Positions 17,112 to 29,789 of a stretch of 64,000 bases of DNA are shown piece by piece. Each line of letters starts with the position of its first letter. Position 1 is the stretch's first letter. A program made the position numbers and the translations under genes. The stretch lies in the NCBI RefSeq assembly GCF_034259205.1, contig NZ_CP139487.1:3286001-3350000 (forward strand), given 5' to 3'. The notes beneath the pieces are model-generated. The model was given only the letters and a program-made list of their open reading frames with translations, was not told the DNA's origin and ran no database searches. The DNA comes from Peredibacter starrii (lineage in GTDB: Bacteria; Bdellovibrionota; Bacteriovoracia; Bacteriovoracales; Bacteriovoracaceae).

Positions 17112-18188
17112 ATGTCAAGACTCCTGATTCTTATCTGCACTTTGATCTGCTTTAAAGCAGAAGCACAGATCTTCCAATTGAAAGTCACAGACTACGATGG
17201 TCTTGATTCAATCAATGCCGTGAAGATCTTTATCGATTCCGAAGTAAAGAAGATTGAAGATTCTGTGAATAAAGAATTTCCCAACGACGCTCCCAGAAGA
17301 ATTCTGCAAGGGATGGGAGACTCAAATATAATGGCCGCAAAAGGAATCGGAACTGATTATACCTCTGCCATGCAAGTAAGTATGATCGGTGCCACTCTTG
17401 GAGCTGGTGCGGATTTTGAACAAGAGGAACACACGAAAAGTGAAACCAGCGGATACGCGGCCGCTCCCGGACTCATGCTTGGTTTTAATTTGGGCGCTTT
17501 AGGAATGAATGACATCCTTAACATGGAAAGCGATAAGCTCAATATGTACGTTAATGCCATGAGTACGAAGTACATCCAATCGCTGGATGATGAAAATGAT
17601 CGTACACTCGTTGGTCTTGATATGACTTCTGTTGGGGTTCACTTCAGATATCATCTGGTGGATAAAAGCGATGTCAATCACAGATGGGGGGGACTAAAAC
17701 TCACCTGGGGCTATGAATATAATCATTCAGACTATACTTACGAAACACGACTCGACCGAATGATTAATATCATCGGGGATAATGAACTCCTCCAAGGTCG
17801 TCTAACTGGTACACCTAAGGCCATCGTAAAAGTCAGAACACATTCCTTCCCACTGGCGGTATCAACCGATTACCAAGTTCTGTCCTTCTTAAATATATAT
17901 GGAGGAACAGGTATGGATTTTAATATTGGTTATGCTAAAGGTATTGGAGTCGCCAACGGAGACGTAACTCCGGTTCTGTGTACCGGCGGAAGTTGTGGTC
18001 CTGGTAGAAATCTTAAACTTCAGGCCCAGGCAAATCTAGATACATCATCTTTGGTCACACCAATTACGGTGAGAGCATTTGGTGGATTTCAACTTAGTGC
18101 TTCTCACTTTAGTTTTTATACTCAAGTGGATAAAGAAGTACTCACGGAGCTCGTAAGTGCAACGGTAGGGATCAGGTTATTTTATTGA
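17112..18188 (+). CDS. Probable outer-membrane barrel protein
   Basis: A 358-residue protein with a signal peptide (RLLILICTLICFKAEA). The mature sequence has alternating beta strands with Gly/Tyr-rich turns and ends in GIRLFY, so it is probably an outer-membrane beta barrel. One CTGGSCG loop near residue 298 may hold a disulfide. The start has a GAGGGGG ribosome site. It is divergent from the DcaP operon across a 208-base gap with several TTGAT/ATCAA elements (CATCAA, TTGATG, GGATCAATCC near 16985-17025). The family is unknown. Confidence 0.75.
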   Translation: MSRLLILICTLICFKAEAQIFQLKVTDYDGLDSINAVKIFIDSEVKKIEDSVNKEFPNDAPRRILQGMGDSNIMAAKGIGTDYTSAMQVSMIGATLGAGADFEQEEHTKSETSGYAAAPGLMLGFNLGALGMNDILNMESDKLNMYVNAMSTKYIQSLDDENDRTLVGLDMTSVGVHFRYHLVDKSDVNHRWGGLKLTWGYEYNHSDYTYETRLDRMINIIGDNELLQGRLTGTPKAIVKVRTHSFPLAVSTDYQVLSFLNIYGGTGMDFNIGYAKGIGVANGDVTPVLCTGGSCGPGRNLKLQAQANLDTSSLVTPITVRAFGGFQLSASHFSFYTQVDKEVLTELVSATVGIRLFY

Positions 18189-24549: not shown

Positions 24550-25437
24550 ATGCCCATTGAAAAGGACCCTCATAAGCAAGATGATTTTCTTATGAGAACA
24601 ATGAAGCGACATCAACTACTCATTCAAAATCAAAACATCCATTTTCTAGAGTGCGGAGAAGGAGAAAGAGTTGTGCTCTTTCATTGTAGTGGCTCTCAAT
24701 CAGGCCAATGGTCAAACTTTATGCGTGAACAAAATCAGTTCCATTGTATAGCTCCTGATCTGGCATGGTATGGAGAGAACGCTCTAGGCCCGAATCCTAA
24801 AACCGCGAATGAGATTGATCACAAAATCGTGGAAACTTTCATTGATCGATTTGCCCCTTGTCACCTCATTGGACATTCTTATGGGGCCGCTCTTTTGCTT
24901 GAGGCACTTCAAAAAAACCGCAACTCTATTTTATCTGCGACTTTCATTGAACCAGTTAGTTTCCATTTATTAAGAGATCATGATTCAAGTTTTCGCGAGA
25001 TAGATCTGTTGGTACAAATGCTTCTAGAATATTTGAATGATGGACAAAGGGTCCTGGCCTCTAAGAAGTTCATCAACTATTGGTCATTCCCTTACGCCTG
25101 GGAATTTCTGGATCACAGATTACGTGAGTATATGATTCAAAGAATTGATAAAATCACCTATGAGTTTTTACCCATGTATCATAAGTCGGGTGAACTCTTA
25201 TTTGATAATGTGACGTATCCGGTGTTCCTGATGGAGGGACAATGGACCAAGCGTCCCATCAAAAACATCATGAAAAGATTGAGTGATTATTTTATGGTGG
25301 GAACTCAGATCATCCCTATGGCAGGACATCTGGCCCCGATTGGCCGATATAAAACGGTCGATAGAATGCTCATGCAAAACTTAAGTCAGTTCAATGCCGG
25401 AAATTCTTTCGATATAGGGCAATTGAATCTTCGATGA
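24550..25437 (+). CDS. Alpha/beta hydrolase
   Basis: A protein of up to 295 residues. Seen: VLFHCSGSQSGQW (oxyanion loop), HLIGHSYGAALLLEAL with the nucleophile Ser in G-H-S-Y-G, and a late GHLAPIGRY with the candidate catalytic His. The substrate is unknown. No start has a clear ribosome site; methionines at 24592 and 24601 are also possible and would remove 14 or 17 residues. Its last 47 bases overlap the pyrophosphatase gene on the other strand, the longest tail overlap in the window. Confidence 0.85.
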   Translation: MPIEKDPHKQDDFLMRTMKRHQLLIQNQNIHFLECGEGERVVLFHCSGSQSGQWSNFMREQNQFHCIAPDLAWYGENALGPNPKTANEIDHKIVETFIDRFAPCHLIGHSYGAALLLEALQKNRNSILSATFIEPVSFHLLRDHDSSFREIDLLVQMLLEYLNDGQRVLASKKFINYWSFPYAWEFLDHRLREYMIQRIDKITYEFLPMYHKSGELLFDNVTYPVFLMEGQWTKRPIKNIMKRLSDYFMVGTQIIPMAGHLAPIGRYKTVDRMLMQNLSQFNAGNSFDIGQLNLR

Positions 25438-25918
25438 CCTTGATGGCATCGTCTTTTCCATCGATGGAAGAAATCTCGACACTCTTTTTTTCCAACTCTT
25501 TATAGCTCTCAAAGAACCTTCGAATCTCATTTATTTTATGCTTGGCCAATTCATCGATTGAGCTGATGTGAGCGTATTCAGGATCGTGTGCATGGATTGA
25601 AATGACCTTATCATCACCTTGGCCCTGGTCCTTCATTCTAATGACACCAATCGGTCTTACTCGCATGATGGACATGGGTATGACTGGAAGTTGTCCGATG
25701 ACGAGAACATCCAGGGGATCTCCATCATCGCAATAAGTTCTGGGAAAAAGACCATAGTTGCAGGGATAATGAACGGAGCTATAAAGAATACGATCCACTC
25801 GAAGTAGACCCGAATCTTTATCAATCTCATATTTGATTTTAGACCCAGAAGGAATCTCGATCATGCAATCGAGTAATTCACCATTAAAATTCAATTCAAG
25901 ATCGTGCCAAGGATTCAT
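25391..25918 (-). CDS. ppa: Inorganic pyrophosphatase (family I)
   Basis: A 175-residue soluble enzyme that splits pyrophosphate to phosphate and drives biosynthesis. Seen: EIPSGSKIKYEID, YPCNYGLFPRTYCDDGDPLDVLV with the metal-binding D-x-x-D-P-x-D, and KDQGQGDDKVISI. The size is typical of bacterial family I. AAGGAG precedes the ATG. The 3' end overlaps the alpha/beta hydrolase gene by 47 bases. A small lipoprotein gene lies 60 bases upstream on the same strand. Confidence 0.97.
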   Translation of the reverse strand: MNPWHDLELNFNGELLDCMIEIPSGSKIKYEIDKDSGLLRVDRILYSSVHYPCNYGLFPRTYCDDGDPLDVLVIGQLPVIPMSIMRVRPIGVIRMKDQGQGDDKVISIHAHDPEYAHISSIDELAKHKINEIRRFFESYKELEKKSVEISSIDGKDDAIKVIEDSIALYRKNFRH

Positions 25919-26185: not shown

Positions 26186-26214
26186 TTGACTTCAACAATT
26201 GAGTATTTTAAATT
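26186..26214 (+). promoter_or_regulatory. Promoter of the TPP-controlled receptor
   Basis: TTGACT (5 of 6 to the -35 consensus) and TAAATT are separated by 17 bases, directly upstream of the TPP aptamer. Transcription would start near 26221, at the 5' edge of the aptamer. Confidence 0.55.
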
Positions 26215-26308
26215 CTTCTCACGTGGGAGTTGCTTCCTTGCATCTGAGAGGCCCGGTTTTGACCGAGCGACCACATAACTTGATCCAGGTAATGCTGGCG
26301 TAAGGAGC
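26215..26308 (+). promoter_or_regulatory. TPP riboswitch (THI element)
   Basis: The signature parts are present in order: GGGAGTTGC, GCATCTGAGAG (consensus CUGAGA), a CGGTTTTGACCG variable hairpin, then CTTGATCCAGGTAATGCTGG and CGTAAGGAG, matching the conserved GAUC..GUUAAUxC..GCGUAGG core. The closing stem pairs CTTCTCACG (26215-26223) with GCGTAAGGAG (26298-26307). That 3' strand contains the ribosome site GGAG of the receptor gene 9 bases before its ATG, so bound thiamine pyrophosphate should block translation directly. No T-run terminator lies between the aptamer and the start. Confidence 0.95.
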
Positions 26309-26315
26309 TCGTCGT

Positions 26316-28361
26316 ATGATGTATGTTTACATCATTTTCTTTTTCTTATTATCAATCCAGGCCGCAGAGAACTTAGAAGAAATCCAGGTCACAGAAGATC
26401 AAGCTACCCAGCTCTCTGACTTCACCGGTTTTACAACTCCTCTTTCTAAAATTCCACTGTCGATTAAGGCCTATAGCGACCAGGACCTGCAAAAAGCACA
26501 GGTAAAGCGACTATCTGATATAACCACCTTGGATGCATCAGTTACAGACAGCTACAACTCCACCGGCTATTGGGACATTATCTCCATCAGAGGTTTTCCT
26601 CTGGATAATAAAAATAATTTTCAGCGGGAAGGTCTGCCTATTTCAGCAGAGACCTCCATCCCTCTTGAAAATAAAGAGCGAATTGAAATTTTAAAAGGCA
26701 TCTCTGGCGTTCAGGCCGGTGTAGCGGGGCCTTCTGGTCTGGTCAACTATGTAGTTAAAAGACCAACGATTGAAAGGAAAACAATATTACGTCTTGATCT
26801 AAGTGAGAGACAAAATGTTTTAGGCGCCATTGATCTCAGTGTTCCTATTAATGAGAAGCTTCGAACACGTACGAATATTGCGCAGGAAAATCTTGATCCT
26901 AAAGTTAAAGATACCAATGGTTCTCGCTCTCTTCTGGCCCATGCATTGGATTACCGTTTTTCAGAGATGGATTCAATCGAAGGTGAAATTGAATGGTCTC
27001 GCCAATCGCAACCATCTGTTCCGGGCTACGGCCTTTTAGGAAATAAGTTACCTCATCCTCTGGATCCGACTCTCAATTTGAACAATCAGTCCTGGAGCAA
27101 ACCTGTTGAATTTGAGGGACTAACCGGAACTATAAAATACGTCCGGGCCCTGAATGATTACTGGAGAACAGATGTTCTTTTGGGAGCACAAAATTTAGTC
27201 ACAGACGACAGGCTCGCCTATCCCTATGGTTGTTCAAAAGAAAATGTTTTTGATCGTTACTGTGCTGACGGAACCTTTGATGTTTATGACTATCGAAGTG
27301 AGAATGAACGACGCTTTTCCAGGTCCGCAAAATTTTCAGTCACAGGAGAAATTCCTGGAACCGTCATTCAGAATTTAAACTTTGGAGCATGGTCGCATTC
27401 CTATCAAGAGAAGATGGGTGGCCAGGCCTATAATTTCGTAGGAGAAGGAAATGTTGATGGTTCAGCAGACCTTCCGGCCAATCCCCAAAAGAACGACCCC
27501 GGAACAAATCGCCTTGCCCGTAATCTCGATTTTTTTATCTTCGATCAATTGAGTTACTCAAAGTGGAACGTCTGGGCGGGTGTGCGCCAATCAAACATTT
27601 CTCGAAGTAGTAAGCGAACGGATGGGACGAGTGGCACTCATTATCAGCAAAGCTTTGTCTTGCCATGGCTTGCACTCTCTTATCAATTTTCAAAATTTAT
27701 GACCTATATGAGTTATGGTCAAGGAATTGAGTCCTTTGTAACTCCCAATCGCGGAGGTTACACAAATAAAGGAGAATTCCTTCCCAATGTTATCAGCCGA
27801 CAATGGGAAACGGGATTAAGAGGCACTGAATCCGTTCAATGGGGATTGAGTCTCTTTCAGGTAAAGCGTCCGGTTGTTCTTGATCAAGATCCCATTTTTG
27901 CAACCGACGGAGTGGCCCAACAGCAGGGCCTTGAGTTTGATCTTGCCCATAAGTATCAGCGCTTTTTATATGGTTTTTCTTTGATGAAACTGAATGTTGA
28001 AAGACAAGACGCCAAGATCGTTCGAGAGTTTAACGGCAAAAAAGTCATTAACGTCCCTGACGAAACGGTTCGAGGATTCATTAACTATGAAGTTCCGAAA
28101 ATTAACGGACTCAATCTAGAGTTGAGACTCATTCATGAAGGAAGACGAGCGGTTGTTTCGGACAATTCGATAATGCTTCCAGATTGGACCAGATGGGACA
28201 TAGGCATTTCGTATCTAAGAAAACAAATGCTTCTACGCTTTTACGTAGAGAACATCGGGAACAAACGCTACTGGCGCGAGTCCCCTACTCAATACGGACA
28301 CGTTTACTTATTCCCGGGGGCCGTGCAAACCGCGAACTTTAATATCGTCTATACACTTTAG
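26316..28361 (+). CDS. TonB-dependent receptor under TPP control, probable thiamine uptake
   Basis: A 681-residue outer-membrane receptor: a short signal peptide (to about residue 17, ending QAA), a TonB-box-like EEIQVTED, a plug domain (about 30-150: IPLSIKAYS, ISIRGFPLDN, ERIEILKGISGVQAG, LVNYVVKRP) and a 22-strand-type barrel ending in VYTL. By sequence it looks like the siderophore-receptor branch. The TPP riboswitch in its leader, masking its ribosome site, argues that the cargo is thiamine, a thiamine phosphate or a precursor. It is the only gene of its transcript as seen; the next gene converges and shares four bases at the stop. Confidence 0.93.
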   Translation: MMYVYIIFFFLLSIQAAENLEEIQVTEDQATQLSDFTGFTTPLSKIPLSIKAYSDQDLQKAQVKRLSDITTLDASVTDSYNSTGYWDIISIRGFPLDNKNNFQREGLPISAETSIPLENKERIEILKGISGVQAGVAGPSGLVNYVVKRPTIERKTILRLDLSERQNVLGAIDLSVPINEKLRTRTNIAQENLDPKVKDTNGSRSLLAHALDYRFSEMDSIEGEIEWSRQSQPSVPGYGLLGNKLPHPLDPTLNLNNQSWSKPVEFEGLTGTIKYVRALNDYWRTDVLLGAQNLVTDDRLAYPYGCSKENVFDRYCADGTFDVYDYRSENERRFSRSAKFSVTGEIPGTVIQNLNFGAWSHSYQEKMGGQAYNFVGEGNVDGSADLPANPQKNDPGTNRLARNLDFFIFDQLSYSKWNVWAGVRQSNISRSSKRTDGTSGTHYQQSFVLPWLALSYQFSKFMTYMSYGQGIESFVTPNRGGYTNKGEFLPNVISRQWETGLRGTESVQWGLSLFQVKRPVVLDQDPIFATDGVAQQQGLEFDLAHKYQRFLYGFSLMKLNVERQDAKIVREFNGKKVINVPDETVRGFINYEVPKINGLNLELRLIHEGRRAVVSDNSIMLPDWTRWDIGISYLRKQMLLRFYVENIGNKRYWRESPTQYGHVYLFPGAVQTANFNIVYTL

Positions 28362-29683
28362 AAAAAGATATCGGTCGCAAGCGAGATGATGGTCCCACTT
28401 TGTCCGGCAGTGTAATAGCCGAATGAACCGCCGGCGGCCGACTTATCCACGAAACTTAGAAAACCGTTTACCCGGAAATTTCTCGTGTTGGTTGGATAAT
28501 AGTTTGAACCAATTCCGGTTTCGGTTGAGTCGTTAAACTCTCCCCAAATTTTTTGGTAGGAAAGATACCCTTCAACTTTTTTAGGAACGAAGAAGTAGGC
28601 CCCTTGAAGATTAATGCCGGTATCGATGAGGGAATTACTTGGCACGCTTCCAATCAAAGTGGAGAAATCGGAAAGCTGCCGCCAGTAGAATTCACTGAAT
28701 AAAAAAAGCCCTCGGTATTTCATTGCCGCATCTGCCGACAAAAGATTGTAATCAGCTTTCTCTACGATTGCTCCCTGAGCAAGAGCATTTTCATCAAAGA
28801 GAAAGTTTCCATCTGAAATTCTGATCTGAACATTGCTCGGTGAACCAGTCTGAATCTGGGTCGCGCGATCTTCCCTACTCGTAGCACCCGAAATACCAAA
28901 ACGTGTTGCCATACTCTGGTGCTGTTCATAGTCACCGTATCCACCCTTGGGGCCAAACTCACCGGTAGTTGGCATCCACCAGATCGTGGCACCGTAGGCA
29001 AAGTCCCTAGTCAATTGACTGGATGTCACACCCAATTGAGAAATGTTGTTCCCGATCATGATGCGATAAAGAAGATCAGGTCTAAGTCCTCCGCGCAGAG
29101 ATAAACCAGTTGTAAATCCTGGTCTAAAATATTCATCTGCCATTTGACGGTCAGTCCCCAGGAAATAAGGATGCTCTCCGTTCATGGAACGAGTACCAGG
29201 TAAACCATCAATACCAAATCCCACAACTGCAGCTTCATTCACTTTATATAAAAGGTTACCGGCAATGATGGATGTCTGTACTGAGTTAAGAGACCAGAAC
29301 ATGAATGAATAATATAGTTTCGGAGTATAAATGAAACCGTTCATCCATACGAGCACACGGTGAATCTCCATATCATTTCGGGCAACGACGGTTTTCTTCG
29401 TTCCCAAATGGTCTCTGTAGTTCTGGCCACCAGGCATTTGATTCAAATAACGAGCAAGCATATAGCCCGAGATATTTAGTGATCCGCACTTGTTCTTACC
29501 AACGACAAAACCTTTGCCGGGTTCAAGAGTGCCTGAGAGAATTCTATGGTCGATCTGCTTGTTTTGAATTTCCGGTGATGGTGGCTCGGTCATACAATCG
29601 AGCACACTTTCACTATCTGGAGTTGTTTCGGCAAAAAGAATGTGAGGTAGAAGCACCAGAAGAATGAGCATTAAAATTTTCAT
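28358..29683 (-). CDS. Outer-membrane porin-like protein
   Basis: About 441 residues. The signal peptide starts at MKILMLILLVLL (29683); eight residues upstream in frame do not look like part of it. The mature protein is beta-rich with Tyr/Gly and ends in LATDIFF, so it is an outer-membrane barrel. HRVLVWMNGFIYTPKLYYSF and GLSLRGGLRPDLLYRIMIGN loosely recall phosphate-selective porins (OprP/OprO), but the match is not secure. It converges on the TPP-controlled receptor with a four-base shared stop. Confidence 0.7.
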   Translation of the reverse strand: MKILMLILLVLLPHILFAETTPDSESVLDCMTEPPSPEIQNKQIDHRILSGTLEPGKGFVVGKNKCGSLNISGYMLARYLNQMPGGQNYRDHLGTKKTVVARNDMEIHRVLVWMNGFIYTPKLYYSFMFWSLNSVQTSIIAGNLLYKVNEAAVVGFGIDGLPGTRSMNGEHPYFLGTDRQMADEYFRPGFTTGLSLRGGLRPDLLYRIMIGNNISQLGVTSSQLTRDFAYGATIWWMPTTGEFGPKGGYGDYEQHQSMATRFGISGATSREDRATQIQTGSPSNVQIRISDGNFLFDENALAQGAIVEKADYNLLSADAAMKYRGLFLFSEFYWRQLSDFSTLIGSVPSNSLIDTGINLQGAYFFVPKKVEGYLSYQKIWGEFNDSTETGIGSNYYPTNTRNFRVNGFLSFVDKSAAGGSFGYYTAGQSGTIISLATDIFF

Positions 29684-29789
29684 GTTGCCGCAGACTGCAT
29701 AACACATGCCAAAGGATTCTTACTAGAATACTTTTACTTGCGTCTATGCAGCAGAGATCTTTTGCCTCATTCAACTTTTTAGCCGGTAA

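What the first reader, a model, noticed from the sequence alone, without database searches (positions are those of the whole stretch)
26186..28361. TPP riboswitch that masks the ribosome site of a TonB-dependent receptor
Seen: the full THI-element core, with the 3' strand of the closing stem (26298-26307) containing the GGAG ribosome site 9 bases before the receptor ATG. Known: TPP riboswitches control thiamine synthesis and uptake, and TonB receptors under TPP control have been proposed in Bacteroidetes and proteobacteria. Inference: this receptor imports thiamine or a phosphorylated form, and its expression is switched at translation. A scavenging outer-membrane route fits an organism that feeds on other cells. 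No thiamine synthesis gene is nearby.
Basis: partly seen in the sequence, partly recalled or inferred. Interest (0 to 1): 0.72.

Follow-up and report, generated by a model that had tools for sequence, protein, structure and literature searches.

The report
Thiamine riboswitch controlling an outer-membrane receptor
A vitamin B1-sensing RNA overlaps the ribosome site of an outer-membrane importer in a relative of the predatory bacterium Bdellovibrio that lacks the B1-synthesis genes tested; the pairing of switch and receptor recurs in dozens of other genomes, so these receptors, which look like iron-siderophore receptors, probably import vitamin B1.

Summary
RF00059 matches 26213-26323 (+), 49.1 bits, E 8.8e-9: below Rfam's cut-off (54.3), but aptamers of the same subtype in relatives exceed it and precede ThiM, a ThiB-like protein and PnuC-type genes. 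One detail is wrong. The Shine-Dalgarno AAGGAG (26302-26307) is not in the closing stem: AAG belongs to P4, GA is the conserved linker, and in this subtype the closing stem P1 pairs only at chance level (38.7% of cells; other helices 83-100%). This is "direct translation attenuation", already described for TPP riboswitches.

The thiamine reading is well supported. It is the genome's only TPP riboswitch. ThiC, ThiD, ThiE and ThiL were not found; thiamine pyrophosphokinase and a symporter orthologous to riboswitch-controlled ones are present. In 369 genomes of the phylum, 24 carry this receptor type and 23 have a TPP riboswitch directly upstream; so do 48 of 79 testable public loci, mostly Burkholderiales (30 of the 31 exceptions are Variovorax). 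The receptor resembles siderophore receptors and is probably annotated as one. TonB receptors under TPP control were known; this receptor type and the near P1-less aptamer are the additions. OFF logic and substrate are inferred; computed folding does not show the switch.

The parts
26186..26214 (+). Candidate sigma-70 promoter: TTGACT (26186-26191), 17 nt, TAAATT (26209-26214); predicted transcript start about 26221, 2 nt before P2
   Evidence: consensus match only. 3 promoter-like sites found in the region against 1.0 in shuffles, so weak alone; in 11 of 15 well-scoring close-start relatives the predicted start also lies 2-9 nt before P2.
26213..26323 (+). TPP riboswitch aptamer as matched by RF00059 (core 26223-26307)
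   Evidence: 49.1 bits, E 8.8e-9, full model 1-105; only one in the genome; covariation in the subtype.
26223..26274 (+). P2 (26223-26226 with 26271-26274) enclosing P3 (26229-26233 with 26240-26244), CUGAGA (26244-26249) and P3a (26251-26257 with 26262-26268)
   Evidence: for coordinates; P2 100%, P3 94.7%, P3a 96.7% of cells paired in 15 sequences.
26279..26304 (+). P4 (CUUG 26279-26282 with UAAG 26301-26304) and P5 (CCAG 26285-26288 with CUGG 26295-26298)
   Evidence: three P4 pairs invariant, P5 100% paired with changes on both sides.
26302..26307 (+). Shine-Dalgarno AAGGAG: AAG = 3' strand of P4, GA = conserved linker, G = first P1 position
   Evidence: Direct reading; ends 8 nt before ATG 26316.
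26316..28361 (+). TonB-dependent receptor, 681 aa, monocistronic; predicted thiamine receptor. TonB-box-like LEEIQVTED near the mature N-terminus (by eye); plug at residues 43-141
   Evidence: Pfam Plug 6.3e-12; TIGR01783 204.5 bits against a cut-off of 223.5; AlphaFold model pLDDT 80; fold matches to FemA, BauA, FoxA and FhuA.

Best explanation
26186-28361 is a single-gene thiamine-uptake unit. A promoter starts a leader that is almost nothing but a TPP aptamer. When TPP is plentiful it binds the aptamer and holds P4 closed; because the gene's Shine-Dalgarno (AAGGAG) is made of the P4 3' strand and the following linker, ribosomes cannot load. When TPP is scarce, the weak P4 (C-G, U-A, U-A, G-U) can be opened by a ribosome and the receptor is made. 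The receptor, energised by TonB, brings thiamine across the outer membrane; a sodium:solute symporter encoded elsewhere (C1:3782362-3783750) is the likely inner-membrane carrier, and thiamine pyrophosphokinase (C1:2351536-2351793) makes TPP, which closes the loop. Shown: the aptamer, its geometry, gene order, gene inventory and co-occurrence. Inferred: ligand binding, OFF logic, substrate and inner-membrane partner.
For: Aptamer. Ribosome site inside the aptamer, start codon 8 nt on; 53 of 65 parsed relatives have a start codon within 25 nt of the core. Aptamers of the same subtype precede ThiM, ThiC, thiamine-ABC binding protein and PnuC-type genes. Receptor and aptamer occur together in 23 of 24 receptor-bearing genomes of the phylum and in 48 of 79 other loci. 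No ThiC, ThiL, ThiE or ThiD; TPK and symporter present. Direct translation attenuation is a described TPP mechanism (PMC2258182). A TonB receptor under TPP control contributes to thiamine use in Bacteroides (PMC5613172).
Against: Score below the Rfam cut-off. P1 practically absent. Thermodynamic folding shows low ribosome-site accessibility in both states and does not demonstrate switching. The receptor's nearest solved relatives bind iron-siderophores. Variovorax relatives keep the receptor without the switch.
Confidence: 0.8

Rival explanations
1. The receptor is an iron-siderophore receptor, as its sequence family suggests, and the TPP riboswitch ties it to thiamine status incidentally.
For: Best solved relatives and fold matches are siderophore receptors; TIGR01783 is the best family.
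Against: 23 of 24 co-occurrence with a TPP riboswitch in the phylum, again in Burkholderiales; the fold is shared by TonB receptors for many non-iron substrates, including PQQ and B12 in the same hit list.
Confidence: 0.08
2. The aptamer is a relic or an ON switch: without P1 it no longer represses, or TPP binding frees a ribosome site that is otherwise paired with the P3 loop (UUCCUU, 26234-26239).
For: P1 absent; the ligand-free fold pairs AAGGAG with that loop.
Against: The loop sequence is not conserved in the subtype, while the aptamer core is, with covariation; an importer switched on by its own end product would be perverse; the aptamer precedes many other thiamine genes in the same close arrangement.
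Confidence: 0.08
3. Control is by transcription termination downstream of the aptamer.
For: Common for TPP riboswitches in Firmicutes (general knowledge).
Against: No terminator-like site between aptamer and ORF; the start codon follows the core by 8 nt.
Confidence: 0.02
4. The receptor takes up a thiamine precursor (HMP or thiazole) or TMP/TPP rather than thiamine.
For: Bdellovibrio genomes with the same receptor have ThiL and no TPK match, which fits use of thiamine monophosphate there.
Against: The window's genome has no ThiD, ThiE or ThiL match to use precursors or TMP but has TPK.
Confidence: 0.12

Closest known systems
TPP riboswitch RF00059, direct translation attenuation type (Barrick and Breaker 2007, PMC2258182)
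   Same: Aptamer core, and a purine-rich 3' region that serves as ribosome site with no separate expression platform.
   Different: Closing stem P1 practically absent in this subtype and a predicted transcript start next to P2. [quoted passage not shown] here it is the common mode of a Bdellovibrio-related phylum.
OMthi (BT2390) of Bacteroides thetaiotaomicron (PMC5613172)
   Same: TonB-dependent outer-membrane receptor behind a TPP riboswitch; loss together with biosynthesis raises the thiamine requirement.
   Different: Different phylum; sequence relation not tested. The window's genome has neither the biosynthesis enzymes tested nor a PnuT match.
omr1, TonB receptor of marine SAR86 and Flavobacteriales (PMC10881298)
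   Same: Predicted B1 receptor near a TPP riboswitch.
   Different: Sequence relation not tested.
TonB-dependent siderophore receptors (TIGR01783; FemA, BauA, FoxA, FhuA)
   Same: Sequence family and fold.
   Different: 15-20% identity to solved members in the fold alignment; window protein under the family cut-off; under TPP riboswitch control.
ThiV-type sodium:solute symporter (PMC10881298)
   Same: An SSS symporter stands under TPP riboswitches in related genera, and an ortholog is in the window's genome.
   Different: The ortholog in the window's genus has no riboswitch; membership in ThiV itself not tested.

Membership tests
TPP riboswitch (RF00059) | Covariance-model score at or above the gathering cut-off (54.3 bits) | tested here: not met
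   49.1 bits; E 8.8e-9; four same-subtype aptamers pass with 58.2-63.5 bits.
TPP riboswitch (RF00059) | Ligand-binding core: CUGAGA after P3, P4-P5 arm with GAUCC...GGUAAU...GGCG | tested here: met
   P2, P3, P3a and P5 95-100% paired with two-sided changes.
TPP riboswitch (RF00059) | Closing stem P1 | tested here: not met
   1 contiguous pair in the window; 38.7% of cells paired in 15 sequences, chance level.
TPP riboswitch (RF00059) | Genomic link to thiamine genes | tested here: met
   Same subtype before ThiM, ThiC, thiamine-ABC binding protein and PnuC-type genes.
TPP riboswitch (RF00059) | Binds TPP | not testable with these tools
   Needs in-line probing or calorimetry.
Direct translation attenuation | Ribosome site inside the conserved aptamer core, no other expression platform | tested here: met
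   AAGGAG 26302-26307 is P4 3' strand plus linker; ATG 8 nt on; no terminator.
Direct translation attenuation | Ligand-dependent change of ribosome-site access | tested here: inconclusive
   Calculated accessibility is low in both states.
TonB-dependent receptor | Plug domain and 22-strand barrel | tested here: met
   Plug 6.3e-12; plug-barrel model and fold matches.
TonB-dependent siderophore receptor (TIGR01783) | Score at or above 223.5 bits | tested here: not met
   204.5 bits for the window protein; a Bdellovibrio ortholog scores 253.7.
Thiamine outer-membrane receptor (OMthi/omr1) | TPP riboswitch control | tested here: met
Thiamine outer-membrane receptor (OMthi/omr1) | Sequence homology to OMthi/omr1 and thiamine transport | not tested
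   Reference sequences were not in the collections used; transport needs experiment.

The most novel reading that the evidence does not exclude
A siderophore-receptor-type branch of TonB receptors, shared by Bdellovibrio-related bacteria and Burkholderiales, is a distinct lineage of thiamine importers. In the window's genome its controller is a minimal one-piece TPP switch whose transcript begins at P2, has no closing stem and uses the P4 strand as the ribosome site, having replaced the different aptamer type that accompanies this receptor elsewhere.
Probability: 0.5. Interest if true: 0.55.

Novelty: new variant of a known kind. Interest (0 to 1): 0.42.

Why it matters
It gives a vitamin B1 role to a receptor type that automatic annotation probably calls a siderophore receptor (a Bdellovibrio ortholog scores over the TIGR01783 cut-off), and a concrete B1-uptake route for Bdellovibrio-related bacteria; an incomplete thiamine pathway was already noted in a metabolic model of B. 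bacteriovorus (PMC7529429). It also offers a natural test of whether a TPP switch works without its closing stem, which is usually drawn as the switching helix.

Tried and rejected
Rfam at the curated cut-off gives nothing in the window; the permissive search was needed. A single-sequence scan of genome contigs for the receptor found nothing; the alignment query worked. Decayed riboswitch before the symporter in the window's genus: none in 12 loci. PnuC/PnuT in the genome: none. Ligand-free versus aptamer-enforced folding as evidence for OFF logic: uninformative. Terminator mechanism: no terminator near the aptamer. Receptor tree for transfer history: the Burkholderiales form one clade (100/100) but the place of the window's receptor is unresolved. 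Pfam on the small secreted genes behind same-subtype aptamers: no family.

Full report
OBSERVATION. The window 26213-26323 (+) matches RF00059 with 49.1 bits, E 8.8e-9 in a 401-nt search. This is under the curated cut-off of 54.3, so the default scan of the whole window reports nothing. It is the only match in the 4.15-Mb genome. Four aptamers of the same subtype in relatives do pass the cut-off (58.2-63.5 bits). A structure-based count on 15 aptamers of the subtype gives 100% paired cells in P2 and P5, 95% in P3, 97% in P3a and 83% in P4, 46 cells changed on both sides against 17.5 in shuffles, and loss of the signal when partners are slid. The element is real.

GEOMETRY. The Shine-Dalgarno AAGGAG is 26302-26307 and the receptor ATG is 26316. 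AAG is in the 3' strand of P4 (26279-26282 with 26301-26304), GA is the conserved linker, and G26307 is the first P1 position. The true closing stem P1 has three non-standard pairs of five in the Rfam alignment, one contiguous pair by direct reading, and 38.7% paired cells in the subtype, which is what slid controls give. Over a wider set of 53 aptamers with a close start codon P1 is short but not random: 53% of five positions pair, against 42% with strands exchanged (the parsing of P1 ends was automatic and approximate). In that set P4 is CUUG in 39 and CCUG in 14, while 10 of 12 with a distant start by that parse have CCUG (the classes are related by descent). The best sigma-70 site, TTGACT-17-TAAATT, predicts a start about 2 nt before P2; 11 of 15 well-scoring sites among close-start relatives predict starts 2-9 nt before P2 (weights from memory; the window's site alone is weak). 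That leaves little room for a P1 5' strand.

MECHANISM. A ribosome site inside the aptamer core, with no separate expression platform, is a described category, 'direct translation attenuation', and TPP is one of the classes where it is commonest (PMC2258182). The calculated folds do not demonstrate switching: enforcing the aptamer costs about 4-6 kcal/mol in the window, and Shine-Dalgarno accessibility is low in both states. OFF logic is therefore an inference from known TPP switches.

TARGET. The 681-aa ORF has a Plug domain, a plug-barrel model (pLDDT 80, pTM 0.82), and best fold matches to FemA, BauA, FoxA and FhuA. It scores 204.5 bits against TIGR01783, siderophore receptors, whose cut-off is 223.5; a Bdellovibrio ortholog scores 253.7, over the cut-off, so such proteins are likely to be annotated as siderophore receptors. 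The neighbouring genes are divergent (25391-25918, -) and convergent (28358-29707, -), so the receptor is monocistronic.

CO-OCCURRENCE. With a receptor profile (A1), 11 of 192 relatives have the receptor, and all 11 have a TPP aptamer directly before it. In 369 genomes of the phylum, 24 have it and 23 have the aptamer; the exception is G220. Genus g83 is taken to be Bdellovibrio because contigs of G218 and G220 equal in length the named Bdellovibrio records L102 and L103 (inference). Among 79 testable loci from public genomes, mostly Burkholderiales, 48 carry the aptamer by pattern, five of them with a long insert inside the P4-P5 arm; of 18 checked with Rfam, 11 pass the cut-off. Of the 31 without it, 30 are labelled Variovorax and one is the Bdellovibrio locus L103. 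The Bdellovibrio and Burkholderiales aptamers share GAGNTAATNCTCGCGCAGGGA, whereas the window and G020 carry the local CUUGAUCCAGG...AAGGAG type that elsewhere precedes ThiM, ThiC, thiamine-ABC binding protein and PnuC-type genes. I read this as an exchange of aptamer before a shared receptor; the tree does not settle the order of events.

METABOLISM. The genome has no match to ThiC, ThiL, ThiE, ThiD or PnuC/PnuT. It has TPK at C1:2351536-2351793 and an SSS symporter at C1:3782362-3783750 orthologous to symporters under TPP riboswitches in sister genera, but without one itself. The simplest pathway is receptor, symporter, TPK, TPP, riboswitch. The symporter's role is inferred; ThiV-type SSS symporters are listed for pyrimidine/B1 transport (PMC10881298).

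KNOWN. TonB receptors under TPP riboswitches are known: OMthi BT2390, where loss together with biosynthesis raises the thiamine requirement (PMC5613172), and omr1 in SAR86 and Flavobacteriales (PMC10881298). A metabolic model of B. bacteriovorus noted an incomplete thiamine pathway (PMC7529429). I found no paper in the held library describing this receptor in Bdellovibrio or a P1-less TPP switch; most subscription papers are not held, so this is weak evidence of novelty.

VERDICT. Observation right except for the closing-stem detail; interpretation well supported but not proven. A structural variant of a known regulator on a known type of target, in a receptor branch and lineage for which I found no earlier description.

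Noticed in passing
L064 (G014, same genus), L048:2001-2464, L041 (G134), L061:2001-2596, L074:2001-2515: TPP aptamers of the window's subtype stand directly before single small secreted-looking genes (121-166 aa) with no Pfam family and no evident likeness to each other: an unexplained target for TPP control.
   Followed up: partly
L094, L095, L096, L097, L098, L099, L100, L050, L040: A second, unrelated-looking TonB receptor type (alignment A2, RGIGERSSYEGMPN signature) is also TPP-riboswitched in other genera of the family.
   Followed up: partly
G156, G166, G172 (g83, taken as Bdellovibrio) against G000: Bdellovibrio has ThiL over the cut-off and no TPK match, while the window's genus has TPK and no ThiL over the cut-off; with no ThiE over the cut-off, Bdellovibrio may need thiamine monophosphate or an unrecognised thiamine kinase.
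   Followed up: no
L115, L160, L165, L171, L176 (about 230-340 nt before the receptor): TPP aptamers with a long insert inside the P4-P5 arm, an unusual place for an insertion.
   Followed up: no
30 Variovorax loci among L112-L162: Variovorax keeps the receptor but has no CTGAGA within about 700 nt upstream: apparent loss of the riboswitch in one genus.
   Followed up: partly
L104:5094-5166, L105:5127-5199, L108:5141-5213 and others: A tRNA gene directly follows the receptor in nearly all Burkholderiales loci checked, which suggests one ancestral insertion site.
   Followed up: no
window 26234-26239 and 26302-26307: The P3 loop UUCCUU is complementary to the Shine-Dalgarno AAGGAG and pairs with it in the calculated ligand-free fold; not conserved in the subtype.
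   Followed up: partly
L066 / L217 (G020): The ATG at ribosome-site distance opens an ORF of under 25 codons; the receptor ORF starts about 70 nt further on: possible leader peptide with coupling.
   Followed up: no
G000:C1:3782362-3783750 (L200) and orthologs L201-L211: The symporter that is TPP-riboswitched in sister genera has no recognisable riboswitch in the window's genus.
   Followed up: yes
window 17112-18188 (+): 358-aa protein of the Lsa36/LIC_11975 surface lipoprotein family, 107.7 bits over a cut-off of 90, a family named from Leptospira.
   Followed up: no
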